A stretch of DNA of 64,000 bases, from positions 930,001-994,000 of the forward strand of contig NZ_LR738724.1 of NCBI RefSeq assembly GCF_902702775.1, read 5' to 3'. The stretch comes from Streptococcus suis (GTDB lineage: Bacteria > Bacillota > Bacilli > Lactobacillales > Streptococcaceae). Each line of letters begins with the position of its first letter. Within the stretch, counting starts at the first letter, position 1. Below, piece by piece: positions 4,829 to 64,000 of this stretch. The position numbers were made by a program, and so were the translations under genes. A model generated the notes under the pieces. That model saw only the letters and a list, made by a program, of their open reading frames with translations. It did not search any database and was not told where the DNA came from.

Positions 4829-5189
4829 AGACTTATTGATTCTTGTATTCAATTATTAGTATTATCAAGGTTAGTTTTTATTAATAACAGACTACTCATT
4901 ACAATAAAACTATAAATAAAAGACAAGAATATTCCCGTTAATGTCCTTGTCTTTTATTTATAGTTAATTATAAACGATATTAATATCCCTTTAGAGCCGA
5001 TTGAATATTTTATGTATATCACGCACTGTCAAGAAATATGTCTGTTAAAGCATAACTTTTTATTCGATTGCATTTGATTTTAGTATGTAGTTACATGTTA
5101 GCTAGGGGATTGTAAAACATGATGAAGTGAAAATATTTATTAAATTTTATATAAGACAAAAACATTTGAATAAAAATACAATAAATAAG
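4829..5189. other. Gene-poor AT-rich stretch
   Basis: No convincing coding sequence is seen between nifJ and the lipoprotein promoter at 5190. It contains a perfect inverted repeat (4908-4965) and otherwise AT-rich sequence. The short open frame at 5197-5397 overlaps the promoter and leader of the next gene and looks spurious. Confidence 0.6.
4908..4965. repeat. Perfect 20-bp inverted repeat with 18-base loop
   Basis: The left arm 4908-4927 begins AACTATAAATAAAAG, and the right arm 4946-4965 is its exact reverse complement. Each outer part is A/T-rich, so the structure has a U-run on either strand and could act as a bidirectional terminator. A small mobile-element remnant is an alternative. 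Confidence 0.7.
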
Positions 5190-7242: not shown

Positions 7243-9081
7243 TTATTTCACACGCTCTAGATAAAAACTGGTCAAACGTGGTACAGTAATTCTAGCTCCA
7301 TTTTCATCGGGATAGAGGCTAAATGTGTCCATTGGAATAGCATTAGATGAGAAGACAAGTTTATATTCGCTGTCAGCGGGCAAATCCAAGTGTACATCAA
7401 ATAGTTCTTGATCATTAAAGTTATGAATAGTTAAGATTTCTTGCTCATCGCTAGTGCGAGAAAAAGCATACAGGCTTGCTTCTTCATCTATTTTTACCCA
7501 ATTAAATCCTTTTTCATAGGCTTGGTAGTCATATTTCCAGAAAGCATCATGTTCTTTGTAGAAAGTAGATAATGTTTTCATCATTTGATAGAAAGAATGG
7601 TGGATTGGAAATTGTAGCAGTCCCCAGTCCATTTCTGTATATTCGTGCCATTCACGGATATGCCCCCATTCATTTCCCATGAAGAGTAATTTCTTTCCAG
7701 GATGGGCAAAGTAAAAGCTGTAGTAGACTCGAGCCAGATGGAACTTATCTTCGTAGTCGCCATTCATCTTCTCGATAATGGAATGCTTCCCATGAACAAC
7801 TTCGTCGTGCGAAAGTGGTAGTAAGAATTGCTCGTTTTGGTTATAGTACATACCAAAAGTGATTTCATTTGAGTGATATTTTCGATAAATAGCAGGGCGT
7901 TCCACGAATTTTAGTGTATCATTCATCCAGCCCAGATCCCATTTCATATCAAATCCAATACCGCCATCTTCTAGAGGATGTGTGACTTTAGGGAAGCTTG
8001 AAGAGTCTTCAGCAATCATCAGGACTCCCTTATAGTCGGTATGGACCATGGCATTGACACGTTTGATAAAGTCAATAGCGGCATGATTTATCTTATCTTC
8101 ATCTGTTTCACCACGCCAATAGAGAAGATAAGATAGTGCATCAACACGGATGCCATCAAAATGGAAATATTCCAACCAGTATTTTAAATTAGAAAGAAGG
8201 AAAGAACGAGTCAGTCCTTTTCCAAGGTCAAAATTAGCAGTCCCCCACTGGTGGTTTTCACGATCTTGTTCGTAGGAGTATTCGTATAGCCAACTACCAT
8301 CAAATTGGTAGAGCCCATGAGCATCTTTACAGAAATGAAGTGGTACCCAGTCAAGAATCACTCCGATTCCTGCTTGGTGACATTGGTCAACTAAATACTT
8401 AAGTTCATCTGGCTTGCCATAGCGACTAGTTGGACTGTAGTAGCCTGTTACCTGATAGCCCCAAGACGCATCGAGAGGATGCTCGGTAATTGGCAATAAT
8501 TCAATATGTGTGTAGTTATTTTCCCTGATATGTTCGATGAGAAGTGGAGTAATTTCCTTATAACTATTGAAAGCTTCTACTGGAGCTCCTCCTTCATTTT
8601 TATTAGCAAATTTTTGCTTCCACGAACCTAAGTGCACCTCGTAGATGGATACTGGCTGTTCTTTAAAATCATAGTTAACACGATTATACATCCAGAGGTC
8701 ATCTTTGAATTTATAACGCGAATTGTAGGTTGTAGAGGCAGTGTCTGGACGAACTTGGCTGAAAAATGCATAAGGGTCAGCCTTATATATTTCACGCCCA
8801 TCGTGTGTGATAATCAGATATTTATAATCTTCAAGGGATTTTAATCCGTCTACATAAAGTTGAAACACACCATCAATTTCACGCTCCATAGAGTGACTGC
8901 GTTGCCACTCATTAAAGTTGCCAACTAAGAATACTTCTCTGGCATTTGGGGCATAGACACGAAATTGGGTTCCGATAATTTTGTTTCCTTCTTTTATAAT
9001 ATGAGCACCCATTTTTTCGTAAAGAGTGGTATGCTCACCAGCATTCATATAATATAAATCTAGGTCAGTAAATTCTGTCAT
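7243..9081 (-). CDS. glgB: 1,4-alpha-glucan branching enzyme
   Basis: This GH13 branching enzyme of 612 residues moves alpha-1,4 chains to alpha-1,6 positions during glycogen synthesis. The N-terminal carbohydrate-binding module (residues about 25-110, FRVYAPNAREVFLVGNFNEW) is followed by the catalytic barrel with GYYSPTSRYG, DGIRVDAL near residue 310 (nucleophile Asp), AEDSS near 355 (acid/base Glu) and LSHDEVVHGK. Start 9081 is preferred over 9093, because GGAG sits 6 bases upstream of it. It is the last gene of a minus-strand operon glgC-glgD-glgA-glgB. In many Firmicutes glgB comes first and glgP last. Here glgB is last and no glgP is seen, so glycogen breakdown genes must be elsewhere or absent. 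Confidence 0.95.
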   Translation of the reverse strand: MTEFTDLDLYYMNAGEHTTLYEKMGAHIIKEGNKIIGTQFRVYAPNAREVFLVGNFNEWQRSHSMEREIDGVFQLYVDGLKSLEDYKYLIITHDGREIYKADPYAFFSQVRPDTASTTYNSRYKFKDDLWMYNRVNYDFKEQPVSIYEVHLGSWKQKFANKNEGGAPVEAFNSYKEITPLLIEHIRENNYTHIELLPITEHPLDASWGYQVTGYYSPTSRYGKPDELKYLVDQCHQAGIGVILDWVPLHFCKDAHGLYQFDGSWLYEYSYEQDRENHQWGTANFDLGKGLTRSFLLSNLKYWLEYFHFDGIRVDALSYLLYWRGETDEDKINHAAIDFIKRVNAMVHTDYKGVLMIAEDSSSFPKVTHPLEDGGIGFDMKWDLGWMNDTLKFVERPAIYRKYHSNEITFGMYYNQNEQFLLPLSHDEVVHGKHSIIEKMNGDYEDKFHLARVYYSFYFAHPGKKLLFMGNEWGHIREWHEYTEMDWGLLQFPIHHSFYQMMKTLSTFYKEHDAFWKYDYQAYEKGFNWVKIDEEASLYAFSRTSDEQEILTIHNFNDQELFDVHLDLPADSEYKLVFSSNAIPMDTFSLYPDENGARITVPRLTSFYLERVK

Positions 9082-9102
9082 AGCAATCTCCATTGCCGAA
9101 AA

Positions 9103-9125
9103 GGAGTGGACTAGGGTCCCACTCC
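9103..9125 (-). terminator. Hairpin between glgA and glgB
   Basis: GGAGTGG (9103-9109) pairs with CCACTCC (9119-9125). There is no long U-run, so it may be a partial attenuator or RNA-stability element within the operon rather than a full terminator. Confidence 0.45.
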
Positions 9126-9153
9126 GATTCAGTTTATTTTTTCATCTTATTTC

Positions 9154-10599
9154 CTAACCACTAATTTCACGGTAGAGCCAGATGTATTTCTCTGCCGAAG
9201 CTGTCCAACTAAAATCACGCTTCATAGCTTGTTCAACCATGGCATGCCAGTCATCGGGACGATCATAGTAGGTTTGAAGGGCTAAATCATAGACTTGTCG
9301 CATATTGTAAGCGTCACGCCCTCCAAAGCTAAAACCAGTTCCTTCTTTGGTAGACATATTGTATGGTGCTACAGTATCAACCAAGCCACCTGTTTCACGC
9401 ACTAGAGGGAGTGTTCCGTAATGCATTGAAATCAACTGGCTAATGCCGCATGGTTCAAACATAGAAGGCATGAGGAAGAGATCGCTTGCTGCATAAATTT
9501 GGTGGGCAAGTGGTTCATTGTAACCACGGTAGAATGCAAATTTATCAGGATAGGCGTGTTTAAAGTGATTAAAGGCATTTTCAATGTCTTCCTCACCATT
9601 GCCTAAGATAACAAATTGGACATGGGCTTGAAGAAGATGGCCAAGTACCTCGGTCAAGAGATAGAACCCTTTTTGCCATGTCAAGCGAGAGACGATACCT
9701 ATCAATAGGACATTCTCATCTTGTGGAAGGGCAAATTGTGCTTGCAGGGCCAGTTTATTAGCCTTTTTACTTTCAATCGTTTCAAGACTATAATTTCTCA
9801 CAAGGTACTGGTCTGTTTGACTATCCCAACTATCATAGTCGATACCATTGATAATGCCAACCAAGTCATATTTGCGCAACTCTAGTACATGTTGCATGTT
9901 TTCGCCGAATTCTTCCGTTAGGATTTCGCGAGCATAAGTTTCAGAAACTGTAGTAACCTTGTCAGCATATAGGATACCAAGCTTCATGAAGCTGATACAT
10001 TCATCATGAAAACGTGCAATACCATCCAAATAGTAGCTATAGTCCATGCCAAGCGCTGACCAAAGCGCTTGTTTATGGAAAATTCCCTGAAAAGCCAAGT
10101 TATGAATAGTGAATACATGCTTGATATTACGGAATTCTTCGCGGTAGCTATAGAAAGTACGGCAAAGGAATGGAAGTGCAGCAGTGTGCCAGTCATGTGT
10201 GTGCATGACATCCGGGAAGAAATGAAGTGCTTCCAACAGACGACATGTAGCATGTTGGAAATAGCCAAAACGCATGGCATCATCGTCATATCCATATAGT
10301 TCATCGCGTTCAAAGAAATCGCGGTGCTCAATAAAATAGAATGTTACTCCATCAACAACCTGACTGTAAACATTTGCCATAGATTGGATGTCGCCAGCCC
10401 GCACATCAAAACTTGATACGTAATCGAAATCAGAGTGATTGTTTACTGCAATTTTTTTGTAGAGTGGTAGAACGACTCGGACATCTAAACCCTGTTTTAC
10501 CAATTCTTTTGGCAAAGAGCCAATAACATCAGCCAATCCGCCAGTCTTGATGAACGGAAGCCCCTCGGATGCTACAAAGAGAACAGATTTTTTTGTCAT
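9154..10599 (-). CDS. glgA: Glycogen synthase (ADP-glucose dependent)
   Basis: This GT5 glycogen synthase has 481 residues, the usual length. It elongates alpha-1,4-glucan from ADP-glucose. The N-terminal KTGGLADVIGSLPK (residues about 18-31) is the ADP-glucose-binding loop. Later come HTHDWHTA, FTIHNLAFQG, and the C-terminal MPSMFEPCGISQL with RETGGLVDTV typical of the GT-B nucleotide site. It ends 72 bases upstream of glgB and starts 8 bases after the glgD stop, so it is translated from the same message. Substrate supply comes from the GlgC/GlgD pyrophosphorylase encoded immediately upstream. Confidence 0.96.
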   Translation of the reverse strand: MTKKSVLFVASEGLPFIKTGGLADVIGSLPKELVKQGLDVRVVLPLYKKIAVNNHSDFDYVSSFDVRAGDIQSMANVYSQVVDGVTFYFIEHRDFFERDELYGYDDDAMRFGYFQHATCRLLEALHFFPDVMHTHDWHTAALPFLCRTFYSYREEFRNIKHVFTIHNLAFQGIFHKQALWSALGMDYSYYLDGIARFHDECISFMKLGILYADKVTTVSETYAREILTEEFGENMQHVLELRKYDLVGIINGIDYDSWDSQTDQYLVRNYSLETIESKKANKLALQAQFALPQDENVLLIGIVSRLTWQKGFYLLTEVLGHLLQAHVQFVILGNGEEDIENAFNHFKHAYPDKFAFYRGYNEPLAHQIYAASDLFLMPSMFEPCGISQLISMHYGTLPLVRETGGLVDTVAPYNMSTKEGTGFSFGGRDAYNMRQVYDLALQTYYDRPDDWHAMVEQAMKRDFSWTASAEKYIWLYREISG

Positions 10600-33772: not shown

Positions 33773-34138
33773 ATGGCATTGAACATTGAAAACATTATTG
33801 CTGAAATTAAAGAAGCTACTATCCTTGAGCTTAACGACCTTGTTAAAGCTATCGAAGAAGAATTTGGTGTAACTGCAGCTGCTCCTGTAGCTGTTGCTGC
33901 AGCTGGTGGTGCTGCTGAAGAAGCTAAAGATTCATTCGACGTTGAATTGACATCTGCTGGCGACAAAAAAGTTGGCGTTATCAAAGTTGTACGTGAAATT
34001 ACTGGTCTTGGTCTTAAAGAAGCTAAAGAGCTTGTTGACGGTGCACCAGCTATGGTTAAAGAAGGCGTTGCAACTGCAGAAGCTGAAGAAATCAAAGCTA
34101 AATTGGAAGAAGCAGGCGCTTCAGTTACTCTTAAATAA
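33773..34138 (+). CDS. rplL: 50S ribosomal protein L7/L12
   Basis: This 121-residue stalk protein recruits translation factors. It has the N-terminal dimer helix ([20 protein letters not shown]), an Ala/Gly-rich hinge ([16 protein letters not shown]) and the globular domain [24 protein letters not shown] region ending [10 protein letters not shown]. Its last 15 bases are the attachment core of an ICE. The reading frame and stop remain intact, so insertion leaves the protein unchanged. Confidence 0.98.
34124..34138 (+). other. ICE attachment site (attL core) at 3' end of rplL
   Basis: GTTACTCTTAAATAA is the reverse complement of TTATTTAAGAGTAAC, the 15-base direct repeat known for ICESa2603-family elements inserted at rplL. 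ICE-type genes begin right after. The matching attR lies beyond the window. Confidence 0.85.
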
Positions 34139-34235
34139 GAGTCACATCATAATTAGATTGCGGAATCCCTATTTACCAGTCTTTGAGAGCGATAAGCGAT
34201 TGATAGAAACTGATAAATTAATTTGGTTTCCTGCC

Positions 34236-34275
34236 AAAAATCCTGCCAAAAATTCTTTGGCAGGATTTTTGTTTT
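34236..34275 (+). terminator. Terminator downstream of rplL
   Basis: AAAAATCCTGCCAAA (34236-34250), loop AATTC, TTTGGCAGGATTTTT (34256-34270) and more Ts. It lies just inside the ICE, so after insertion the ICE supplies this terminator for the rplJL message. Confidence 0.92.
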
Positions 34276-44710: not shown

Positions 44711-47387
44711 ATGAAAGAGGATAAAAAGCTAGTCAAACAGGCTAGGCAAAACTTTCGAAGCAACTTAAAATCAGCCCGTATGCATTATCGGAAAGAAGTT
44801 AGGACCTTAAGACAGACTGTTCCTAAAAAAGGAAGATTTCGAAAATCAGCCAAAAATTCTCTGTTTCAGGAAAAGAAAACAGAGTTAAAAGGAAATCTAC
44901 TCAGTAGCCAAAAGGAAGCAGAAGAGAAGTTCATAAAGGAAATTACCTATGTTTCTCCTAGACTGTTGAAGGTAAAGGAAATCAAGAACTATCGACTTCC
45001 GCAAGCTCAAGAACGTTTGCGGACGGCAAGAAAACATCTGTCAGAAGTGAAACTAAGTGAGAAACAACAGGTAGTTAATCCCAAGTTTACTTTCCAAAAA
45101 GAAAATCCTTCCCTGAAGTCTCGCTTTCAGTTTCACCAAGAAAAATCATTTGATCGACTCAGTGCAGAAAAAGACGTAAGTTCTGCCAAGCGTGAGGTTA
45201 AACAACTCAAGAAAGTCCAAAAGACTAAGAAAAACTCTACCAAAGTCAAAGTTGGATTAGGCTTAGCTGCATCTGAATCGCTTGACCTGGTAGCACAGGA
45301 GGATGATTTAGATGGTCTAAGAACCATGAAGGATACTAGTTTGAAAGTCAGACGCTATGGCAGGTTTACCTATCAAGCAGGTAAGGTGGCAGTAAAAAGT
45401 GGACAGACTGGTGTGAGGTTTACCAAAACAAAATTTTCTCATGGAAAGGAACGATTCCAGAACTTCAAAAAGGGAAAAGGATTCACACGCCAGAAACCTC
45501 TTAAACCAAGAAGACGCTACCAAACCTTTTTAAAGCATGTGAGAAAACAAAGTGTCGCAGGTATCAAAGGAATCGTCCAAGCCATTAAGGGAAGTGTGAC
45601 TTTCTTTTCTGTCCTTGCGGGAAATCCTTTGACTTGGATTGTCTCAGGCATTCTCTTGATACTCCTTTTGATGATGAGCTTTTTCATGAGTGTTTCAGGT
45701 AGTAGTGTCATTCAACAAGATGAGATGGAATTGACCAAGGCCTATACCCACATGACGTGGGAAGATGCGGAACATACGAGAACCAACGAAAAAGGGATTG
45801 CCTACTACACCAAGATTGATGAGATTATGGTTTACATGAATCATCAATACCAAGACTACAAGCTTGACGATTTCATGGAAACAGGTGGTGTGACCTACAA
45901 AGCGTTTCTCAGTCAAGTGTGGACAGACTTAAATGGTGGAGATTCTATTAAATCCATGTCTGACTTATATAAAGAACCTACTTACAAGCTGTCTGATGAG
46001 GACCAGGAAGAGTTAAAGGAGTTGACAGAAGGAGGCAACTATCTAGCCCTTCAAGAATTGGACAATCCCTTTCAGGGACAGACCGGTGAGGATAGCTTAA
46101 GCATGACCTACCGATATGGGTATGAGGTCATTGATGAGAAACCAACGCTTCATCACCATATCATCTTAGAAGCCAAAGGAGGTCAAGTCATTGTGTCTCC
46201 TATGGATGGTAAGGTATCTCTTGATGGAGAGAATATTATTTTGACATCTGGTAAGGGAGTGAACAAGACTAAACTAACCTTGTTTGGCATTCATTCAGGC
46301 CGAGTGAGTGAAAATCAACATGTCTTGGCAGGAGATATTATTGGTCAGACCAAAGACGGAACGGGTCTAAAAGTCACCTATCAAAAAGTTGATGATGACA
46401 CGGATAAGTTGGTCTATGTCAATCCAGCTTTCTACTTTCCAAAAGTGATTCAGGTTCAGACCACCATTCTTCCAACTATCGGTCAGTTTGGCGGCGATGA
46501 GTTTGAGAGAGCCAAGGCAATTTATGACTATCTTAAAAGCAAAGGTGCGACCAATCAAGCTATCGCAGCTATTTTAGGAAATTGGTCGGTAGAATCTTCC
46601 ATTAATCCAAAACGAGCTGAAGGCGACTATTTATCTCCGCCAGTTGGTGCGACTGATAGTTCGTGGGATGATGAGGGCTGGCTATCACTCAATGGTCCAA
46701 CTATATATAATGGGCGTTACCCAAATATTCTCAAACGTGGTTTAGGCTTAGGACAATGGACAGATACCGCGGATGGGTCACGCAGACATACTTTACTGTT
46801 GGAATATGCCAAAGGAAAACATCAAAAATGGTATGACTTAGGGTTACAACTGGATTTCATGTTGCATGGGGATAGTCCTTATTACACCAACTGGTTAAAG
46901 GACTTCTTCAAAAATTCAGGCAGTCCAGCTAGTCTTGCCCAGCTCTTTCTCATTTACTGGGAAGGAAATAGTGGTGATAAGCTACTTGAACGTCAAACAC
47001 GAGCCAGTGAGTGGTATTACCAAATTGAAAAAGGCTTTAGTCAACCTAACGGTGGGACAGCACAAAGTGATCCAAAAGCACTTGAAGCTGTACGAGGAGA
47101 CCTTTTTGAAAACTCTGTTCCAGGAGGTGGTGACGGTATGGGGTATGCCTACGGCCAATGTACTTGGGGAGTCGCAGCCCGTATCAACCAACTGGGTCTA
47201 AAACTCAAAGGTAAAAACGGTGAGAAGATTCCAATTATCAGTACCATGGGCAATGGCCAAGATTGGGTGCGTACAGCCGCAAGTCTTGGTGGGGAGACAG
47301 GGACAAGTCCACAAGCAGGAGCTATTCTTTCCTTTGCGGGAGGAGGGCATGGCACACCAACAGAATACGGACATGTGGCTTTCGTCG
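44711..47387 (+). CDS. Wall hydrolase of conjugation module (lysozyme + CHAP), exon 1
   Basis: This is the PrgK-like peptidoglycan hydrolase, opening the wall for the transfer channel. Basic coiled N-terminus (to about 290), one membrane helix (about 305-330), an M23-like degenerate region (about 490-560), a phage-lysozyme-type domain (about 597-776, AIAAILGNWSVESSINPK), and a CHAP domain beginning MGYAYGQCTWGVAARI near 815 with the catalytic Cys. The gene is cut at 47387 after codon GTC plus one G by a group II intron. Without splicing, the frame stops at 47404 and the CHAP domain lacks its end, although the His of EYGHVAF is kept. With exon 2 (50172-50296) a 933-residue protein forms. Starts 1 base after the VirB4 stop. 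Confidence 0.92.
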
Positions 47388-48112
47388 GTGCGAGACGTTT
47401 CTAACTGAAAAGGTTAGACACGTTCTTGAAAAATCAATCTGTTTATCAGGTTAAATTTGAAGAGAATGGAGAACTCTTATCTTGAAAATTGGAATGAAGG
47501 GGTAACGCCCTGAAACGATTTCTCTAATACTCCGACATGCGTTTATCTGATGCAAAGGTAAAGGTATGAAGCTCGGTGAAGTCGGCTGAAAGATACCGTC
47601 ATTCTTAAGGACTTAAGAATCGAAAGTGTTCCAGAGGTGGGATATGTATCTGATAGGTCGGGAGTCATTAAAAACTAAATAGGGTGAGAATGTGCATGAG
47701 CACTGACGAACCAGCGAATGTACGCTCCGAAGGCGAGTACGTAGAAATGCGTATAGCAACGTAAGTTGTTTCAACTTGAGGAAGAGTAAGAATCGACGAT
47801 ATGAAATTCCTTGTTATGTTACAGGCATATCAAAGTTGAAGGGGTATAGCTAGGCACCTAAGTTTAGTATTGATAAAGATAAGGGAACGTCGAAAGCTAG
47901 AGATGTGGAGGATGCACAACCAGCGAAGCAATGGAAAGGAAATCATAACTTTCCTTAATCTCTAGTGAGAGTGGTGGCACGACCTTTGAAAGTGTTGTAA
48001 TGATACTGGAGGAACAGCCACTAGTCAATAGTGTATTGTTATGAACTTTATCATTTCATGGATTCTTGTAAGACATAAAAGGTCACGAATCCAAAGAGAG
48101 GAGTGATAGACC

Positions 48113-50026
48113 ATGACGAAACCAAAAAATGATGACAAACTATTAAAACGTCAAAAACTAAGGTATGCGGAATACTATGGCATGACCGAAATATTTGATG
48201 ATTTATATTCCAAAAGTCAAAATGGATTCAACTTTAAGAATTTGATGAACATTATCACATCTCCCGAAAATATACTACTCGCATATCGTACCATAAAGCG
48301 GAATGGTGGTAGTCAAACCGAGGGAGTAGATGGTGTTACCATTAAAGATTTAGAAAATTTGACCCAAGAAGACTTTATCTCTAAAGTTCAAAGAAGATTT
48401 CAATATTATAGACCCAGAAAGGTCAGAAGAGTAGAGATTCCTAAACCAAATGGAAAGAAACGACCACTAGGCATTCCCTCGATGTGGGACAGAGTAGCCC
48501 AACAGTGTATTTTACAAGTGTTGGAGCCAATCTGTGAAGCGAAATTTTATAAACACAGTTATGGATTTAGACCCTTAAGGTCGGCTGATAATGCTATTAT
48601 GGACTGTATGTATCGTATGAATAAAAGTCATATGTCTTATGTCATTGACGTTGATATTAAAGGCTTTTTTGATGAAGTGAATCATACTAAGTTAATGCGT
48701 CAAATCTGGACCTTAGGTATCAGGGACAAACAACTTCTAGTGATTATTCGAAAAATGTTAAAAGCACCAATTGTTCTTCCGAATGGAAAAGTGAGCCATC
48801 CAACTAAGGGCACACCACAAGGAGGTATCTTATCTCCACTACTTGCCAATATCAATCTTAATGAATTTGATTGGTGGATAGGACGACAATGGGAAGAAAG
48901 AGATTGTAAGGAATTAGTTCCTCAATATAATTCCAAGGGAACAAGACACAAGTCACATGTTTATAGAAAGCTGCGAGCTTCAACGACACTAAAAGAGATG
49001 TATATTGTTCGATATGCGGATGATTTTAAAATCTTTTGTCGAAATAGGAATGAGGCAGAGCGAACGTTTAAGGCTGTAAAATTGTGGTTAAAAGAGCGAC
49101 TTAACCTCCCTATTTCAGAGGAAAAATCTCAAATTACCAATCTGAGAAAGAAAAGCAGTGAATTCCTCGGGATTACTTTAAAGTTAGTTTCTAAGAATAA
49201 TCGCTTTGTTTGCTTCTCTCATATTGCACCAAAAGCCAAGAAACGTATTAAACATCAACTGAAACAACAGATGAAATTGATACAAATTAAAGGTGTTAAA
49301 GAAACAATTATTCGTGAAATACAGAAGTATAATAGTATGGTTATCGGTATTCATAACTACTATAGTATGGCAACACATGTGAGTAAGGATTTAGAAGAAA
49401 TTCATTATCAGCTTTACCTCTCTTTTAAAAATCGATTGCAGGCGAAAGGTCTGACAAAAATAGGAGAATACAAGGGAAAAGATAAAGGGGTTCTCCCTTA
49501 CCTTCAATCTCAAAATATTCGGTACTTAATGGGTTATCCAATTCTTCCAATTAGCTATGTCAAGACGAGAACACTAAAAGGAAGAAATAAGAATCTGAAT
49601 AGGTATACTCCTGAGGGGAGAAAATTGATTCATAAACAACAGGAATCTGTGGAAACCTGGAAATTAAAATGGCTGAGAGAACACCCAATTATAAATAAGC
49701 GTGCAACTGTTGAATACAATGATAATCGAATTTCTTTATTTGTAGCTCAAAAAGGGAAATGTGCTGTAACCGGTCAGGAATTGGATATGGATGATATTCA
49801 TTGTCACCATAAGAGACCTTGGTCAGAAACAAAGGATGACTCTTATAGGAACCTTATCATTGTTGGACGAGATAGTCATCGCCTGATTCACGCAACAAAT
49901 GAGAAGGCTATCAAAAATCTCTTTCAGCTTTTGAATTTGAGTAATACAGGACTGACCAAATTAAATCAGTTGCGTGAACTTGTAGGAAATCCACCATTAT
50001 TGAAAGAAAATTTGAACTTAGAATAA
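48113..50026 (+). CDS. ltrA: Group II intron maturase / reverse transcriptase (LtrA-like)
   Basis: An intron-encoded protein of 637 residues. It has the RT N-terminal part NPENILLAYRTIKRNGG-like text and RPLGIPSMWDRV, and the active site IVRYADDFKIF near 298. The maturase X domain follows (NRLQAKGLTKIGEYKGK). A C-terminal HNH nuclease module (CAVTGQELDMDDIHCHHKRPW near 553, with a later NLIIVGRDSHRLIH) is intact, so retrohoming by target-primed reverse transcription looks possible. GAGGAG about 8 bases upstream of ATG marks the start. The gene lies in domain IV of the intron. Confidence 0.95.
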   Translation: MTKPKNDDKLLKRQKLRYAEYYGMTEIFDDLYSKSQNGFNFKNLMNIITSPENILLAYRTIKRNGGSQTEGVDGVTIKDLENLTQEDFISKVQRRFQYYRPRKVRRVEIPKPNGKKRPLGIPSMWDRVAQQCILQVLEPICEAKFYKHSYGFRPLRSADNAIMDCMYRMNKSHMSYVIDVDIKGFFDEVNHTKLMRQIWTLGIRDKQLLVIIRKMLKAPIVLPNGKVSHPTKGTPQGGILSPLLANINLNEFDWWIGRQWEERDCKELVPQYNSKGTRHKSHVYRKLRASTTLKEMYIVRYADDFKIFCRNRNEAERTFKAVKLWLKERLNLPISEEKSQITNLRKKSSEFLGITLKLVSKNNRFVCFSHIAPKAKKRIKHQLKQQMKLIQIKGVKETIIREIQKYNSMVIGIHNYYSMATHVSKDLEEIHYQLYLSFKNRLQAKGLTKIGEYKGKDKGVLPYLQSQNIRYLMGYPILPISYVKTRTLKGRNKNLNRYTPEGRKLIHKQQESVETWKLKWLREHPIINKRATVEYNDNRISLFVAQKGKCAVTGQELDMDDIHCHHKRPWSETKDDSYRNLIIVGRDSHRLIHATNEKAIKNLFQLLNLSNTGLTKLNQLRELVGNPPLLKENLNLE

Positions 50027-50088
50027 TCATGTTAATCATATTAATATAGAAAGATAAAGCAAAATCGTGATAATACACTATTGATGGA

Positions 50089-50122
50089 ACGCCGTGTGCG
50101 GTAAAAGTCGCACGCACGGTGT
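50089..50122 (+). ncRNA. Group II intron domain V
   Basis: ACGCCGTG-TGCG pairs with CGCA-CG-CACGGTGT around an 8-base loop: 34 nt in all, with the CGC catalytic triad at 50090-50092 and the CG two-base bulge. This is the most conserved part of group II introns. Confidence 0.9.
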
Positions 50123-50171
50123 GAAGCGGGGGAAAAGATGGAGATAGTATCAAAGTTTTACCTATCGCTAT

Positions 50172-50296
50172 AAAAAGTTTACCCAGATGGCTCATTCCTT
50201 ATCTCCGAAACCAATTACAATGGCAATCCCAACTACACCTTCCGTAAATTATCTGGAGTGGATAGTAGCTTAAGTTTTGCTTATACGACGAAATAA
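50172..50296 (+). CDS. Wall hydrolase, exon 2 (end of CHAP domain)
   Basis: The 125 bases after the intron carry the last 40 codons and TAA at 50294-50296. The frame reads (E)KVYPDGSFLISET and NYNGNPNYTFRKLSG, the expected final strands of a CHAP domain (GHVAFVEKV..DGS..ISE.N). It has no start or ribosome site of its own. It makes sense only after intron removal. Confidence 0.93.
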
Positions 50297-50356: not shown

Positions 50357-51202
50357 TTAATCAGAATTTATAGAAATGAGAACTGTTATGAGACGAATCA
50401 TCTCATCAAGAACATCTGCAAGTGAAATCCCTTTTGTATAGCTATATTTTTTTGAATAATTTTGCCATTGTTTATTCTGAATAGGGTCAGATTTGAACCT
50501 CTCGAGTAGTTCAATAATCTTTACAAAATCGAGTTCTGTTTCGCGATATGAAAATGTTCTCTGACAGGCATTTCTCAACTGAATGAAGTCAATGTCTTCT
50601 TTCTTCAGTTTTGAAAGAATATAAACATCGTAAAAATCTTTGCTTCTACTGTTCAAGAAGTTACGTGAATAGATGGTTTGAAGTTTTTCAGCTAGAATTG
50701 TTTCAATTGTATAAGCAATGATTGGAAAATTGTCTTCATCAAAAATAGCTTTATAGTCGTATGTAATCGGCTGAGGAGTTACAACATCACCTGTCGCAAT
50801 ATCCAAATGGATAACTTGTTTAATATTCTCAAGCTGGCACGAAATTGTTGCTCGATAGCCACCATAGTCATCACTTTCTTTAATAGCTGTGATTGATTGA
50901 ATCACAAAAGATATACCTTCTTCGGAATCTGCTAAAATTTCCTTGAGTTGCTGCTTCACAGTATCTTCTGAGAGTGTTATTTGATGGAACAAAAAATCAA
51001 TATCAACCGTGCTACGTGATTCAACTCCGATAACATTTGACAGTAGGAATCCTCCTTTGAAGATATAGTGATTTGAATAGGTACTCTGACTTAATTTTTT
51101 CAAAATCACTTCAAGAAAGTAATAGGTCATCACGGAATTAAAGGTTAATCCAGTATTCTTTGATATTTTATGACAGAGTGCTGTTAGCTTAGCTTTATTC
51201 AT
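50357..51202 (-). CDS. abiEii: AbiEii/AbiGii-family nucleotidyltransferase toxin
   Basis: This 281-residue protein is the toxin half of an AbiE-type (type IV) toxin-antitoxin system, which causes growth arrest and phage abortive infection. The nucleotidyltransferase motif FKGGFLLSNVIGVESRSTVD then IDFLF lies near 43-65, with the Asp-x-Asp metal site in VDIDF. The text TVIAYTIETILAEKLQTIYSR-like segment in the middle (ETILAEKLQTI) is a typical AbiEii motif with a conserved Lys. It overlaps the abiEi stop by 4 bases, typical for the pair. In the ICE it is cargo that may stabilise the element. Confidence 0.93.
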   Translation of the reverse strand: MNKAKLTALCHKISKNTGLTFNSVMTYYFLEVILKKLSQSTYSNHYIFKGGFLLSNVIGVESRSTVDIDFLFHQITLSEDTVKQQLKEILADSEEGISFVIQSITAIKESDDYGGYRATISCQLENIKQVIHLDIATGDVVTPQPITYDYKAIFDEDNFPIIAYTIETILAEKLQTIYSRNFLNSRSKDFYDVYILSKLKKEDIDFIQLRNACQRTFSYRETELDFVKIIELLERFKSDPIQNKQWQNYSKKYSYTKGISLADVLDEMIRLITVLISINSD

Positions 51203-51789
51203 ACTAGGACCTCCAGAGTTTGTTTGACCTTGTCCAAGGTGTTCATTTTTGTCGCATATTCATAGAGTTTTGTAAGATTTTTTTTAGAATAGTTTCCGTA
51301 ATGTTGAAGTGTTTTGACAAAAAGCTCAGTATCTATTTTTTCTCGATGAATCACAAAATCACAGATAATACGTTCTAAATCATACACTCTTACCTCGTTT
51401 CCCATAGGGGTTTTTACAAGTGTAATTCCTAGTTCGCTATATTCCTTAGAAACGGAATGAATGTTCAGATTTGCTGGAGGAGTATTAAAACGGTAGCCTC
51501 TAGGAATGGTTACGTCAAAATATTGAGGAATTTCATCTGTAAATTGTTGCAGGTAAAGCGCTGAGATATAAGAGAAAATAGCCTTGGGATAACGGTACTG
51601 AAAGAAGTAGTATTCGTCGTAGTCTCCATTCTGGGTTAGGAAAATTCCTTTTTCGACGCGGTATAGAATCCCTTCTTTTTCTAGTCTTGTCAAATATATT
51701 GTTGGAATCTTTAGAGCTTTACAATCTTTATAGGTGATAATGCCATTGTGGTTTTCTATAAATTCAAGTAGAATCTCTTTTTTTGACAT
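51199..51789 (-). CDS. abiEi: AbiEi-family antitoxin and repressor
   Basis: The 196-residue antitoxin has an N-terminal winged helix (LLEFIENHNGIITYKDCKAL and YLTRLEKEGILYRVEKGIFL) and an AbiEi C-terminal domain with YDLERIICDFVIHREKID. AbiEi antitoxins work without contacting the toxin and repress their own operon by binding inverted repeats. ATG 51789 is chosen over TTG 51804, since AAGGAG lies upstream of it. The palindrome just upstream (51803-51855) fits as operator. Confidence 0.92.
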   Translation of the reverse strand: MSKKEILLEFIENHNGIITYKDCKALKIPTIYLTRLEKEGILYRVEKGIFLTQNGDYDEYYFFQYRYPKAIFSYISALYLQQFTDEIPQYFDVTIPRGYRFNTPPANLNIHSVSKEYSELGITLVKTPMGNEVRVYDLERIICDFVIHREKIDTELFVKTLQHYGNYSKKNLTKLYEYATKMNTLDKVKQTLEVLV

Positions 51790-51802
51790 ACTTACTCCTT
51801 CC

Positions 51803-51855
51803 AATGTTGCTTTTGCACTACAATTTTACAATATTTGTAGTGCAAAAGCAACATT
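51803..51855 (-). promoter_or_regulatory. abiE promoter within a perfect 21-bp palindromic operator
   Basis: The left arm 51803-51823 and right arm 51835-51855 are exact reverse complements with an 11-base centre. On the minus strand a -35 TTGCTT (51851-51846) and -10 TAAAAT (51828-51823) with 17-base spacing are wholly contained in it, so a bound repressor would block RNA polymerase. Confidence 0.85.
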
Positions 51856-57725: not shown

Positions 57726-57740
57726 AAAATGGGAGGGAAA

Positions 57741-60700
57741 ATGAATCAAGAAGTCTTACTACAAATGATGAGAGCCACCATTCCTCGTGATAGAGCCCTG
57801 CTTGAGGCATTTTTATATTACCAAGCAGAGCATTTTGATGAGGAGTGGGATAGTCTTATTCGTCAGTTTATGACCAATAGGCAGGGAATCAAAAGATCTG
57901 TTCAGGTACTTCACTTTGAGACAGATGTTTCAGCTTTTGTCCAGGCTAGTCCTTATGATACTGCTCATGATCTATTGACCTATACACAAGTTTTCGGGCA
58001 AAGTGGTCTCCAAAAACTCGACAAACTATCGCCGTCTGAAAAAGACTTGGTGATTGAAGTGGCCTTGTTCAATCTGGCCACTCGTTTTCAACTATTAGAC
58101 TCAAATGGACACTACCAAACTATTTCACCAGATTCTCTATTACAAAAGAGTAGGGGAGCTAATTTGGTCAATGTTTATCGTGTGGCTAATAATTTAGCGG
58201 ATCGGATCAGCCGAGATATTGAACAGTTTCTCTTAACTTACGAGCCTGAGCTTGAAACAAGAGCTGATGAAACTGTTCTAGAAAATGAAGAAACTGTTGA
58301 TGAGCACAAAACAAGTGTTCATCAAGTAATATCATTTAGAGAAGAGGGATCGCTAATTATTGCTAGTTTGGATGTAGATTTGTCTCATTTGGATATCCGA
58401 ACTGGAAAAACCAGTCATCTGCCTGCCTATGAAGAGTTGTCATTACGACGTAAATTTGAGATTCTAACATATTTTGACCAAATTCGAAATGAACGTTCAA
58501 AAGTCCCAAGTTTTAGACGAGGTGATTTTGACACTGAGATGGAAATGACACCAATCTTTGATGGCGAGGAGTTACTTACCTATCTAGAGGCTGATGGTAG
58601 TCCCTATGAGCTGAAACGAACGCTGACTACAGTCGAAGAAAAGGAATTAGAAAAAATTGGACAAGCTATTAGGATAGAAAATCAAGAAAAATTGACTCAG
58701 CTAGGGATTGATTTATCTCAGTTTGACCCAGACCGAGTCGGTATTTTATTGGATGCAGCAGGTCGTTTTCGTTTGAAAAATGCGGACCTAGCTTTACTAG
58801 GTGGCTATCCCAAAGCCTCGGTAACTCAACTAGCCCTTGCGACAGAACTACTCCAAATGGGACTAAGTCATGAAAAGGTTGAATTTTTCTTTGGTAGCCA
58901 GCTTTCCCTTGAAGAGCTGCGACAAATTGCCTACGCCTTTTTACACCAAGAACTCAGTAGAGAAGATGCGGAACAATTTGAAAAGGATAAGGGCAATCAG
59001 CCAGATTTAACCCTCAGAGATTGGAAGAACAAGCTAGAGAAAGTTGAGGGAAAAGAAGTAGCTGATGAAGAATTCGCGGAAAATCCACTAGTCCAGAGAG
59101 TATTGGACACTTATCCTCTGGGGTCATTGGTTTCCTATAAGGGACAGGACTTTGAGGTCGTGTCGGTCAGCGATGCTCGATTGAATGATTTGATTCGGAT
59201 TGAGTTAGTCAATGATTTTTCGGATATCATTGAACAAAATCCAGTTCTTTATTTGAGGACATGGGAAGAAGTCAGTCAGGCACTTCATCAGCCAAAGGCA
59301 GAACCACAAACAGAGTTAGAAGAAGCGGACCAAGAATTAAACCTATTCTCATTTCTGGAAGAGGAGCCAGTTCAGAGTATTGGACTATTGGAACCAGATG
59401 ATTCAGAAAATGGTCATAACGATACTGATCTTGAAGAAACAGATAATCAAATTCCTGAAGAGGAAGTCGTCGAAACAATTCCAGAGATTCCAGTAACGGA
59501 CTTTTATTTTCCAGAAGATATGACGGACTTTTATCCTAAGACTGCTAGAGATAAGGTTGAGACAAACATTGCGGCCATTCGTTTGGTTAAAACACTTGAA
59601 ACGGGACGCCGTCAGGCAAGTACAAGTGAACAAGAACTCCTTGCCAAGTATGTGGGCTGGGGTGGACTAGCCAATGATTTCTTTGATGACTATAATCCAA
59701 AATTTTCTAAGGAACGAGAAGAACTGAAAAGCATAGTCACAGATAAAGAGTATTCGGATATGAAACAGTCCTCTCTGACAGCCTATTACACAGACCCAGC
59801 CCTGATCCGTCAGATGTGGGATAAGTTGGAAAGAGATGGCTTTACAGGTGGCAAAATCCTAGATCCTTCCATGGGAACAGGGAATTTTTTTGCAGCAATG
59901 CCCAAACACTTAAGAGAAAAGAGTGAGTTATATGGTGTAGAGTTAGACACCATCACAGGAGCTATAGCCAAACACCTTCATCCCAATAGTCACATTGAAA
60001 TTAAGGGCTTTGAGACGGTAGCTTTTAACGACAATAGTTTTGATTTGGTGATTTCAAATGTGCCGTTTGCCAATATACGAATTGCGGATAACAGGTACGA
60101 TAAGCCTTACATGATTCATGACTACTTTGTCAAAAAGTCACTTGATTTGGTCCATGATGGTGGACAAGTAGCGATTATCTCTTCCACAGGAACTATGGAT
60201 AAGCGAACAGAAAATATTTTACAAGATATTCGTGAGACAACTGAATTTCTTGGTGGGGTTCGACTGCCTGATTCTGCCTTTAAGGCCATTGCGGGAACGA
60301 GTGTCACAACGGATATGTTATTCTTCCAGAAACACCTGAACAAGGAATATGTGGCAGACGACTCAGCCTTTTCAGGTTCCATTCGCTATGACAAGGATAG
60401 TCGCATTTGGCTCAATCTTTACTTTGATGGAGAATACAATAGCCAAGTGCTAGGAACCTACGAGGTCAGGAATTTTAACGGAGGAACACTTTCTGTTAAG
60501 GGGACTAGTGATGACTTGATTGCAAGTGTTGAAGCAGCTCTACATCAAGTAAAAGCCCCAAGAGAGATTGATAGAAATGAGGTCATCATTAATCCAGATG
60601 TGTTGATCAAACAAGTCATTGATACCTCCATTCCAGCTGAAATGAGGGAGAATCTGGGTCAGTACAGTTTTGGTTACCAGGGTTCTACAGTTTACTATCG

Positions 60701-63191
60701 AGATAATAAAGGCATTCGAGTCGGAACCAAGACGGAAGAAATCAGTTACTATGTCGATGAAGAGGGCAACTTCAAAGCATGGGACACCAAACATTCTCAA
60801 AAGCAGATTGATCGCTTTAATGCCTTAGAAGTGACTGATAACACTGCTCTGGATGTCTATGTGACAGATGATGCAGCCAAACGTGGTCAGTTTAAGGGAT
60901 ATTATAAAAAGACAGTTTTCTATGAAGCTCCTTTGTCTGATAAAGAAGTGGCACGAATCAAAGGAATGGTCGATATTCGCAATGCTTACCAAGAAGTCAT
61001 TGCCATTCAACGCTATTATGACTATGATAAGAAGACCTTTAACCACTTGTTAGGTAAACTCAATCGTAGCTATGATAGCTTTGTCAAACGCTATGGGTAT
61101 TTGAATAGTGCTGTGAACCGCAATCTTTTTGATAGTGATGACAAGTATTCGCTTCTTGCTAGTTTGGAAGATGAAAGTCCGGTTCCAAGTGGAAACTCCG
61201 TTATCTACACCAAGTCCCTTGCTTTTGAAAAGGCTCTGGTGCGTCCTAAAAAAGAGGTTAAAAAGGTACATACTGCCCTTGATGCCTTAAATTCGAGCTT
61301 GGCTGATGGTCGAGGTGTTGATTTCGATTATATGATGTCTATCTATCAGGTTGAATCGAAGATGAACTTGATTGAGGAGTTAGGTGACCTCATTATGCCT
61401 GATCCTGAGAAGTATTTGAATGGGGAGCTGACCTATGTTTCTCGCCTAGACTTTCTGTCAGGTGATGTCGTTACCAAGTTAGAAGTGGTGGACCTATTCG
61501 TCAAACAAGACAATCAGGACTTTAACTGGTCACATTATGCGGGACTTCTAGAAGCTATCAAACCAGCCCGTATTACTTTGGCAGACATTGATTATCGAAT
61601 CGGTTCACGCTGGATTCCTTTGTCTGTTTATGGAAAATTTGCCCAAGAAACCTTTATGGGGAATGCCTATGAATTATCGGACCAAGAAGTAGCGACAGTC
61701 CTAGAAGTCAGTCCCATTGACGGGGTTATCACTTACCAATCTAAGTTTGCCTACACCTATTCCAACGCAATGGATAGGAGTTTAGGTGTCCCTGCTTCAC
61801 GCTATGATAGTGGTCGAAAAATCTTCGAAAATCTCCTGAATTCCAATCAACCAACGATCACAAAACAAATTGTTGAAGGGGATAAGAAAAAGAATGTGAC
61901 GGATGTAGAGAAAACAACGGTCCTGCGTGCCAAGGAAACACACCTACAGGAATTCTTTCAAGATTTTGTAGCAAGGTATCCAGAAGTCCAACAGATGATT
62001 GAAGACACCTATAACAGTCTCTATAATCGTACAGTATCAAAGACCTATGATGGTAGTCATTTAACCATTGATGGACTTGCCCAGAATATCTCCTTACGTC
62101 CTCACCAAAAGAATGCCATTCAACGAATTGTGGAGGAAAAACGTGCCCTACTAGCCCACGAGGTAGGGTCAGGAAAAACCTTGACCATGCTTGGAGCTGG
62201 TTTCAAGTTGAAAGAATTAGGGATGGTGCATAAACCTCTCTATGTGGTTCCTTCTAGTTTGACTGCCCAGTTTGGTCAAGAAATCATGAAATTTTTCCCT
62301 ACCAAGAAAGTCTATGTGACTACTAAGAAAGACTTTGCCAAAGCCAAACGTAAGCAGTTTGTGTCTCGGATTATTACAGGGGACTATGATGCCATTGTCA
62401 TTGGGGATTCCCAGTTTGAGAAAATACCGATGAGTCGTGAAAAACAGGTCACCTATATCAATGACAAACTTGAGCAACTCAGAGAAATTAAACTAGGAAG
62501 TGACTCTGATTACACGGTGAAAGAAGCGGAACGTTCGATTAAGGGATTGGAACACCAGTTGGAAGAACTCCAAAAACTAGAGCGAGATACCTTTATTGAA
62601 TTTGAAAATCTTGGAATTGATTTTCTTTTTGTGTATGAGGCTCATCACTTCAAGAATATCCGTCCAATCACTGGACTTGGGAATGTCGCGGGAATCACCA
62701 ATACTACTTCAAAAAAGAACGTAGACATGGAGATGAAGGTGAGACAGGTTCAGGCAGAACATGGAGATAGAAATGTCGTTTTTGCGACAGGAACGCCAGT
62801 TTCTAACTCTATTAGTGAACTTTTCACCATGATGAATTACATTCAACCTGATGTTTTAGAGCGATACCAGGTATCCAATTTTGATTCATGGGTTGGGGCT
62901 TTTGGGAATATTGAAAACTCCATGGAACTAGCCCCGACAGGTGATAAATACCAACCTAAGAAACGGTTTAAGAAATTTGTCAACTTGCCTGAACTCATGC
63001 GAATCTATAAGGAAACTGCCGATATTCAGACCTCAGATATGCTCGACTTACCTGTACCTGAAGCTAAGATTATTGCGGTGGAAAGCGAGTTAACGCAAGC
63101 TCAGAAATACTATTTAGAAGAGCTGGTAGAGCGTTCAGACGCTATCAAGTCAGGTAGTGTTGCTCCAAGTAGAGATAACATGCTTAAGATA
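57741..63191 (+). CDS. N6-adenine methylase / SNF2 helicase protein, exon 1 (interrupted)
   Basis: The first 1817 codons of a very large protein. An N-terminal region of unknown fold (to about 580) precedes an N6-adenine methylase-like domain: AKYVGWGGLANDFF near 635, ILDPSMGTGNFFAAMP near 704, and SNVPFANIRI near 770, where the usual NPPY is NVPF. The SNF2-like helicase follows: ALLAHEVGSGKTLTMLGAG near 1470 (motif I), a motif II that reads FVYEAHHFKN near 1630 in place of DEAH, and FATGTPVSNSISELFTMM (motif III). The gene is cut after LKI at 63191 by a second group II intron. GGGAGGGA sets ATG 57741. Its role in the ICE, perhaps anti-restriction or DNA processing, is unproven. Confidence 0.9.
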
Positions 63192-64000
63192 GTGCGCTGT
63201 TAAGCGTAAAAATGTATCTCCCTCACAGAGGGATATTATTGAAAGTAAATAATAGGAACAACTAACTAACCTAGCGGGGAAACCCAAAGGGGACAATAGC
63301 ATGTTAGTAAAGCGGATAAGGAGCGAGTTACAACGCTTTGATGTGCCGCAAGTTCCGTAACCTATGGTTAAGGCTAAACTGCTTGAACCTCAATTCTGAC
63401 TAGGTGCAAAGCATCGCCCATCGGAAAGTAACTGAGACCGATGTTACTGTATATTCGTTGTTGTGATTTTGGACGAATAACTTTCTACAGTAAAAGAGCA
63501 TACGATAAGTATGAATAAAGGAATGAGTGAGGAACCTAAGGGTTACTAGAACGTACATTTTTAACGAATAGCAGGATTGCCTAAGAGGGGAGACCCTTAT
63601 GGTAACGGAGTCACCGTAGTAGTCCGAGCAAGGGAAATCCTTGTACATGGCGAAGGGTGACAGGTAATTTCGATTAGTTAGAAAGGATTAGGTGCGTGGG
63701 ATGCGTACAGCCAAAACTATCTTAACGGTCATTCATGAACGTGGAAAACAAGATAAACCACTCGAAAGGGTTTATAAGTTACTATTTAATCGTGAACTCT
63801 ATCTGATAGCCTATGCAAAGTTATACCCGAATAATGGAGCAATGACAAAGGGTGTTACAGAGGAAACGATTGATGGAATGTCTATTCAAAAAATAGATAT
63901 GATTATTGAACAATTAAGACAAGAAACCTATTACTGGAGACCAGCTAGGAGAGAGTACATTCCTAAAAAGAATGGAAAACACCGTCCTTTGGGAATACCA
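63192..64000 (+). mobile_element. Group II intron 2, 5' part, inserted in the SNF2 gene
   Basis: GTGCG at 63192-63196 directly follows the conserved DNMLKI codons, and the frame stops at TAA 63201-63203. About 510 bases of structured, non-coding sequence follow, including CGGGGAAACCC and AAGAGGGGAGACCCTTATGG hairpins, leading to a maturase ORF at 63701. The 3' end is beyond the window. Its sequence and maturase differ from those of intron 1. Confidence 0.85.
63701..64000 (+). CDS. Group II intron maturase / reverse transcriptase, N-terminal part
   Basis: The frame is open from ATG 63701 to the window end (100 codons). It starts MRTAKTILTVIHERGKQDKP and has LYLIAYAKLYPNNGAMTKGV, the RT-0/N-terminal motif with TKGVTEETIDGMS, then RPARREYIPKKNGKHRPLGI, the conserved KRPLGIP-type RT-1 motif. 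It is clearly a group II intron RT, from a different lineage than the protein at 48113, which has NGGSQTEGVDGV in this place. GGATTAGG upstream is a weak ribosome site. Confidence 0.9.
   Translation, partial: MRTAKTILTVIHERGKQDKPLERVYKLLFNRELYLIAYAKLYPNNGAMTKGVTEETIDGMSIQKIDMIIEQLRQETYYWRPARREYIPKKNGKHRPLGIP

What the first reader, a model, noticed from the sequence alone, without database searches (positions are those of the whole stretch)
47388..50171. Group II intron splits the CHAP domain of the conjugation wall hydrolase, with boundaries resolved to the base
Seen: 5' GTGCG, 34-nt domain V at 50089-50122, maturase with YADD and HNH, 3' CTAT. IBS1 TCGTCG (47382-47387) matches CGACGA (47794-47799) in 6/6 positions. 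Joining 47387 to 50172 recreates the codon GAA and the run GHVAFV-E-KVYPDGS-FLISET, a continuous CHAP. Known: group II introns in bacteria usually avoid conserved genes, but Ll.LtrB and GBS introns do occur in conjugation genes. Inference: conjugation depends on splicing. The unspliced product ends 5 codons into the intron and loses the last CHAP strands.
Basis: partly seen in the sequence, partly recalled or inferred. Interest (0 to 1): 0.82.

Follow-up and report, generated by a model that had tools for sequence, protein, structure and literature searches.

The report
Intron splitting a conjugation wall hydrolase

Summary
47388-50171 is a 2784-nt group II intron (Rfam D1-D4 and D5-D6 hits; reverse transcriptase/maturase 48113-50026). 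Of 30 hydrolase loci fetched, 27 cover the seam: 23 intron-free ones read [VI]EKVYPDGSFL[IV]SETN across it, 4 carry the intron. The guide EBS1 (CGACGA) lies in a hairpin loop with compensatory stem changes and co-varies with IBS1. A one-base guide, EBS3 at 47847, complements the first 3'-exon base in 16 of 16 discovery introns and 68 of 71 further contexts. The same genome holds a second, 2784/2784-identical copy at the same codon of another element's hydrolase, 39% identical in protein. Relatives in S. mitis, S. cuniculi and two E. faecalis plasmids use that codon too. This is a homing lineage aimed at GHVxxV|E of CHAP hydrolases, a target not among the four intron families that PMC12479173 describes (main text). 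'Conjugation depends on splicing' is plausible but unshown. Related introns in clear reading frames lie in codon phase 1 in 26 of 29 cases, putting both junction-flanking bases on mostly non-degenerate codon positions; this may be new.

The parts
44711..47387 (+). 5' exon of the conjugation wall hydrolase: 892 codons plus one base; phage-tail-type lysozyme domain (aa 599-769) and first part of the CHAP domain (from aa 808)
47373..47378 (+). IBS2 candidate (ATGTGG), 5 of 6 pairs with EBS2; 6 of 6 in the second own-genome copy and in L009
47382..47387 (+). IBS1 (TCGTCG)
47388..50171 (+). group II intron (IIB by guide anatomy), 2784 nt, GTGCG...CTAT
47469..47672 (+). ribozyme 5' part matched by Rfam RF02004 (D1-D4-5)
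47757..47762 (+). EBS2 candidate (CAACGT)
47778..47812 (+). EBS1 hairpin; stem 47778-47783/47807-47812 paired in 19 of 19 introns at all six positions, pair type changing on both sides at three
47794..47799 (+). EBS1 (CGACGA)
47847..47847 (+). EBS3 (U), complementary to the first base of the 3' exon; 16 of 16 introns in the discovery set, 68 of 71 further contexts
48113..50026 (+). intron-encoded protein, 637 aa: reverse transcriptase/maturase (YADD at 49013-49024), C-terminal HNH-like endonuclease region (about 49760-49870)
50087..50171 (+). domains V and VI (Rfam RF00029); domain V 34 nt at 50089-50122
50172..50296 (+). 3' exon: last two bases of a codon, 40 codons of CHAP C-terminus, and the stop

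Best explanation
A mobile group IIB intron with its own reverse transcriptase/maturase homes into one codon of the CHAP-type wall hydrolase of conjugative elements. The target is the stretch GHVxxV|E just after the CHAP histidine. It is read by EBS2 (candidate), EBS1 and EBS3, which pair with bases between about -15 and +1. By retrohoming the intron copies itself into intron-free alleles, also in unrelated conjugative elements sharing a cell; the element then carries it to new hosts. In the mRNA the intron splices out with the help of its protein, leaving the intact hydrolase, so the conjugative element pays little. Shown: anatomy, boundaries, EBS1 and EBS3 pairs by co-variation, same site in several kinds of element, two identical copies in one genome, purifying selection on the protein. 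Inferred: splicing and retrohoming in the living cell, and any effect on conjugation.
For: Rfam and family hits. Empty-site homologues. EBS1 co-variation and compensatory stem. EBS3 found on 16 introns and confirmed in 68 of 71 further contexts, against 16 of 71 for the runner-up column, which is a gap in 29 of them. Own genome: two copies identical over 2784 nt in genes whose proteins are 39% alike. All 10 places with at least 95% identical protein, in 9 of 197 genus genomes, are at the same codon, as are 6 of 6 named loci of that identity in S. suis, S. mitis and S. cuniculi (the two sets overlap) and both E. faecalis plasmid regions opened (73% identical protein). dN/dS of the protein 0.04-0.14 over the non-identical copies (from the dN and dS). 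3' exon open to its stop in 16 of 16 readable copies of 18.
Against: No RNA data. Several copies pair at only 5 of 6 EBS1 positions (L004, L005, L008, L053/L070, L081). One copy (L070) has a stop inside its protein. The S. cuniculi host gene is split into short frames upstream, so that copy may sit in a dead gene. The 3' exon may be intact only because the insertions are young. EBS2 is only a candidate, and the HNH match is below its cut-off.
Confidence: 0.93

Rival explanations
1. The intron acts as a brake on conjugation rather than a neutral passenger: after splicing, its EBS guides reopen ligated hydrolase mRNA, its own and that of co-resident conjugative elements, and lower hydrolase levels.
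For: Ll.LtrB does this to its relaxase mRNA and lowers transfer 3- to 4-fold (PMC6003770, abstract and section 8). Here one guide set fits the target sequences of two co-resident elements.
Against: No RNA or transfer data for this intron; the extrapolation is from an intron that I recall as IIA (section 7 of that paper, headed as general for group II introns, was not read).
Confidence: 0.3
2. The unspliced message is useful: the truncated product (lysozyme domain, incomplete CHAP) is a second, single-activity isoform, and splicing switches between the two.
For: The stop comes five codons into the intron, after a complete lysozyme domain.
Against: An early stop inside an intron is expected by chance; nothing shows that the short form is stable or selected; the 3' exon is intact.
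Confidence: 0.1
3. The intron is inactive here and the hydrolase gene, or the whole element, is dead.
For: The same element also carries a second group II intron in its SNF2 helicase gene, and some relatives of the CHAP intron are damaged.
Against: Intact ribozyme landmarks, intact protein under purifying selection, intact exon frames, and an identical second copy, which speaks for recent mobility.
Confidence: 0.05
4. The two identical copies arose by recombination or duplication of flanking DNA, not by retrohoming.
For: Both copies lie in one genome.
Against: The full identity covers the intron only; the hydrolases are 39% identical in protein, and the only other upstream DNA match is 72% over 281 bases.
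Confidence: 0.03

Closest known systems
Group II intron families of S. suis conjugative elements (PMC12479173, passages)
   Same: Site-specific introns in conserved motifs of conjugation genes of Tn5252-superfamily elements, identical introns found in elements of different families.
   Different: The four published targets are VirB4, two helicase motifs and the coupling protein (passages read; supplements not available); chap, virb1, lysozyme, hydrolase and amidase each occur 0 times in its main text. This would be a fifth target family.
Ll.LtrB / Ef.PcfG in relaxase genes (PMC5072309 abstract; PMC6003770 abstract and section 8)
   Same: Mobile intron in a conjugation gene; homologous introns in Lactococcus and Enterococcus that splice and move.
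   Different: Relaxase target; a IIA intron by recall. Here EBS3 pairing excludes IIA, and the target is the wall hydrolase.
Tn5397 intron in orf14 (passages of PMC4430133 and PMC5225093)
   Same: Group II intron inside the wall-hydrolase gene of a conjugative transposon; spliced with the help of its protein according to the review.
   Different: Host enzyme is NlpC/P60-type, intron given as 1831 bp; I could not compare the insertion codon or the intron sequence.
RadC-targeting relatives (e.g. L012, L024, about 60% identical protein)
   Same: Same ribozyme type, same codon phase, insertion in a conserved motif (HNH|.SG).
   Different: Different target and different EBS1 (GGTGGT).

Membership tests
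mobile group II intron | ribozyme domains including D5/D6 | tested here: met
   RF02004 184.9 bits, RF00029 54.2 bits, both above cut-off
[quoted passage not shown]
   TIGR04416 364.5 bits, cut-off 300
mobile group II intron | HNH endonuclease domain | tested here: inconclusive
   HNH_4 20.5 bits, cut-off 22; C564 and H566 are invariant in the 10 aligned proteins
mobile group II intron | precise empty site in relatives | tested here: met
mobile group II intron | splicing in vivo | not testable with these tools
   needs RNA
subgroup IIB | six-base EBS1-IBS1 pairing in a domain I hairpin loop | tested here: met
subgroup IIB | EBS2-IBS2 pairing (absent in IIC according to a passage of PMC3522654) | tested here: inconclusive
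   5 of 6 here, 6 of 6 in L001 and L009; no co-variation test made
subgroup IIB | EBS3 pairs with the first 3'-exon base, and the base before EBS1 does not (against IIA; IIC shares EBS3) | tested here: met
   EBS3 16 of 16, then 68 of 71; the base before EBS1 is T in 19 of 19 although the 3' base is A, C or T
intron families of PMC12479173 | target VirB4, helicase or coupling-protein motif | tested here: not met
   target is CHAP GHVAFV|E
Tn5252/ICESa2603-type element | conjugation module of the CD1110/CD1115 kind | tested here: met
   VirB4 CD1110 and VirD4 CD1115 family matches above cut-off
Tn5252/ICESa2603-type element | integration at rplL | tested here: inconclusive
   the L7/L12 gene (33773-34138) lies just upstream; integrase, relaxase and element ends were not examined

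The most novel reading that the evidence does not exclude
Introns of this clade read a protein motif rather than a mere DNA string. They settle in codon phase 1: 26 of 29 distinct-EBS1 introns in a clear reading frame, 3 in phase 0, none in phase 2 (binomial P 4.5e-10 against one third). The 29 are not wholly independent: some share a target gene, three of them CHAP. Phase 1 is the only phase in which the bases on both sides of the junction (-1, paired with EBS1; +1, paired with EBS3) are codon positions 1 and 2, the mostly non-degenerate ones. Opposite third positions the guide often uses G-U wobble (17 of 52 pairs, against 5 of 115 elsewhere; P 2e-6), so synonymous changes are tolerated. This would let one intron invade the same motif in conjugative elements whose DNA has diverged. 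The phase bias is strong within this sample. The wobble half is confounded with position in IBS1. At the same two positions, introns outside frames show 3 of 15 wobble, not significantly fewer than 16 of 46 (P 0.35). An earlier, looser control without a clear frame, which still held several introns probably in genes, showed the same skew (11 of 39 against 3 of 85). EBS1 bases able to wobble (G, U) are not clearly enriched at third positions once each EBS1 counts once (34 of 50 against 53 of 100, P 0.08).
Probability: 0.35. Interest if true: 0.65.

Novelty: new member of a known kind. Interest (0 to 1): 0.45.

Why it matters
It adds the CHAP wall hydrolase to the conjugation genes that group II introns use as a homing site and gives a clean natural pair (identical introns, two host genes, one cell) for testing retrohoming and trans effects between conjugative elements. 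It warns that such elements look 'broken' in annotation when a splicing intron splits the gene. The EBS3 set of 71 contexts and the phase-1 bias make a general question testable: how RNA-guided introns keep hitting a target whose DNA drifts synonymously.

Tried and rejected
Treating the 6/6 IBS1 match as proof by itself: rejected, about 0.18 expected by chance. Delta-type (IIA) pairing: rejected, the base before EBS1 is T in 19 of 19 introns whatever the 3' base. A second EBS3 candidate column (47458, 15 of 16): not borne out in the larger set, 16 of 71, 29 of them gaps there. Co-conversion of flanks between the two own-genome copies: rejected, the short upstream similarity looks like ordinary homology. 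Codon wobble as a proven cause: not accepted, the position confound remains. A branch-point adenosine was not assigned.

Slips and reruns: a first EBS2 check used coordinates one base off and gave meaningless pairs; repeated correctly. A nine-sequence hairpin alignment with roughly chosen ends was poor and the stem was counted on the domain I alignment instead. A dN/dS script skipped every pair because of gap columns and was rerun. The reading-frame rule was loosened from twofold to 1.8-fold. Phage records: 62 with a match, 4 covering at least 80% of the query, not pursued.

Literature: paper searches listed nothing that I recognised as an intron in a CHAP conjugation hydrolase; I saw listings, with passages of a few papers. 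One search matched 79 papers, of which 15 were listed ('chap' also matches chaperone), so this is weak. Passages note group II introns in an S. suis element's snf2 gene (PMC9815147) and in an S. canis element without naming the target (PMC3541175); the latter might be this lineage and was not checked. For codon-phase or wobble bias of EBS1 one search was run, with passages of two papers, and nothing was seen. Only open-licence papers were searchable.

Full report
What is there. The window lies at 930001-994000 of a 2.19 Mb single-contig genome. The genus is Streptococcus and the species probably S. suis or near it. This is inferred from the nearest named loci (S. suis, 99% identical intron protein, 97% identical DNA over about 4 kb of intron and flanks), because the genome itself is unnamed. 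Downstream of the L7/L12 gene (33773-34138) an integrative conjugative element runs past the window's end. It has RepA_N, a cytosine methylase, VirD4 (CD1115 family), VirB4 (CD1110 family) and then the wall hydrolase at 44711-47404. The hydrolase has a phage-tail-type lysozyme domain (aa 599-769) and a CHAP domain that starts at aa 808 and is cut off by an in-frame stop. Next come a 637-aa group II intron protein (48113-50026), an AbiE toxin-antitoxin pair on the other strand, a large antigen I/II-type surface protein and an SNF2/methylase helicase. Beyond the window there follow a ribosomal-protection tetracycline gene and erm(B). For that reason I compared the two exon pieces only apart.

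Boundaries. Rfam finds the 5' ribozyme part (47469-47672, 184.9 bits) and domains V-VI ending at 50171 (54.2 bits). A search of 197 genus genomes with the truncated hydrolase found relatives in 87 (E<=1e-40). Of the 30 loci returned, 27 show the seam: 23 read YGHV[AS]F[VI]EKVYPDGSFL[IV]SETN without interruption and 4 carry the intron; 3 do not show it. On DNA level 16 plus-strand intron-free loci gave two matches to the window; 4 break at exactly 47387 and 50172 and the other 12 within five bases. A solved amidase (5t1q) aligns to an intron-free relative straight across the same place, YGHVAFVEKV..DGS..ISE. From memory, the CHAP catalytic residues are a Cys, this His and an acidic residue such as the Glu of ISE. 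If so, the intron separates the His from the Glu and the unspliced product lacks the Glu.

Guides. The exact complement of IBS1 occurs once in the 725 nt before the ORF, which alone would happen by chance about 0.18 times. Relatives at unrelated targets settle it. In the aligned EBS1 column 11 distinct IBS1/EBS1 combinations make 63 of 66 pairs, against a shuffled mean of 35.7, and none of 20,000 shuffles reached 63 (L026, with a seven-letter column, was left out there). In the larger set, 55 of 63 distinct combinations pair at 5 or 6 of 6 positions and 8 fall lower; there EBS1 was allowed to slide by one base, which helps pairing. The stem that presents EBS1 (47778-47783 with 47807-47812) is paired at all six positions in 19 of 19 introns, with pair types changing on both sides at three. 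For the 3' side, position 47847 complemented the first 3'-exon base in 16 of 16 introns, but it was the best of more than 500 columns. So I tested it on further introns, where it holds in 68 of 71 distinct contexts with all four bases represented. The three misses are L097, L226 and L030. Intron ends were allowed to snap by up to 2 bases to an [AT]A[TC] ending, and some of the 71 are near relatives of one another or of the discovery introns. The runner-up column falls to 16 of 71, 29 of them gaps there. The base before EBS1 is T throughout, so delta pairing of the IIA kind is not used. EBS3 alone does not separate IIB from IIC; the six-base EBS1, the candidate EBS2 (47757-47762) and the insertion inside genes speak for IIB.

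A homing lineage. The own genome has a second copy. It is identical over all 2784 nt, in another conjugative element with VirB4, VirD4, a PgrA-type surface-exclusion domain and a SAG1250-like relaxase match below its cut-off, in a hydrolase 39% identical to the window's. Flanks differ, the target codon is the same. In 197 genus genomes there are 10 places with at least 95% identical protein, in 9 genomes; all 10 are at this codon. So are all 6 named loci of that identity (S. suis 3, S. mitis 2, S. cuniculi 1; these overlap with the unnamed ones) and both E. faecalis plasmid regions I opened (73% identical protein; the plasmid search stopped at 5000 records, 241 of them in the 60-80% identity band). 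The S. cuniculi copy lies near an AAA_10 ATPase and a phage-type integrase match, so probably in another kind of mobile element, in a gene that looks frame-broken. More distant relatives use other motifs: RadC HNH|.SG, topoisomerases (SDWLVGM, DREGEN), a coupling protein (DEFAN), an SNF2 helicase, and motifs that I recognise from memory as RecJ, UvrD-type helicase, DinB and DNA polymerase III.

Is it alive? The intron protein is under purifying selection (dS 0.10-0.28 with dN 0.005-0.024, a ratio of 0.04-0.14, over the copies that differ). The 3' exon, which has no start of its own, is open to its stop in 16 of 16 readable copies (2 of 18 are cut by contig ends, and some copies may be one strain seen twice). 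Against 8 close relatives that I chose (4 of the intron-free and 4 of the intron-bearing loci) it shows only synonymous changes in 41 codons; more distant intron-bearing copies do differ in amino acids. That fits splicing but could also reflect young insertions. One copy (L070) has a stop in its protein.

Conjugation. In this genome no intron-free member of the hydrolase family was found to complement (2 of 2 interrupted at E<=1e-40), and PMC12479173 argues likewise for VirB4 and the coupling protein. But the unspliced product keeps its lysozyme domain. PMC5225093 (passages) states that the Tn916 orf14 homologue is essential for transfer, whereas I recall that blocking splicing of the Tn5397 intron in orf14 did not lower transfer (original not held). 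PMC6003770 (abstract and section 8) shows an intron lowering transfer 3- to 4-fold. So dependence is open and a braking effect is a serious rival.

Known or new. Group II introns in conjugation genes are well known. PMC12479173 (passages) describes four families in S. suis elements, aimed at VirB4, two helicase motifs and the coupling protein, and argues as I do here that conserved motifs explain identical introns in different elements. CHAP is not named in its main text; its supplements could not be read. I file this as a new member of a known kind with a new target. What may be new in general is the phase bias. From 186 profile hits, 141 had a 5' end; of 63 distinct IBS1/EBS1 combinations, 39 lay in a clear upstream frame and 24 were set aside (9 without frame, 7 ambiguous, 8 with poor pairing). 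One intron per distinct EBS1 leaves 29: 26 in phase 1, 3 in phase 0, none in phase 2. Phase 1 is the only phase that puts -1 and +1 on codon positions 1 and 2. Third-position wobble pairing is enriched too, but the controls cannot yet separate codon from position, and one looser control shows the same skew outside clear frames.

Noticed in passing
window 57729-63203 and L031:1-1586: The SNF2/methylase helicase frame of the same element ends at DNMLKI, a published intron target; another group II intron protein (36% identical to the first) and a domain V-VI hit ending at L031:1586 follow, so the element carries two group II introns.
   Followed up: partly
L031:1617-2084: Downstream piece of the helicase ends soon after the WRPSD motif, itself a published intron target; resistance and topoisomerase genes follow.
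   Followed up: no
L031:2806-4725 and 8736-9473: Tet(M/W/O/S)-type ribosomal protection gene and erm(B) downstream on the element. Described only.
   Followed up: no
related introns, 29 distinct EBS1: Strong codon-phase-1 bias of insertions into genes (26 of 29).
   Followed up: partly
related introns: G-U pairs between EBS1 and IBS1 gather at third codon positions; confounded with position in IBS1.
   Followed up: partly
L009:4250-5293: S. cuniculi host hydrolase of the intron is split into several short frames, so the intron can sit in a probably dead gene.
   Followed up: no
G739 (L097, L103, L105): Three intron-protein matches of equal score in one genome of another family of the phylum, a sign of recent spread.
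   Followed up: no
window 50357-51804, minus strand: AbiEii/AbiEi toxin-antitoxin pair directly behind the hydrolase.
   Followed up: no
window 34124-34273: Match to the Listeria sRNA family rli38 (76 bits) overlapping the end of the L7/L12 gene at the element's edge.
   Followed up: no
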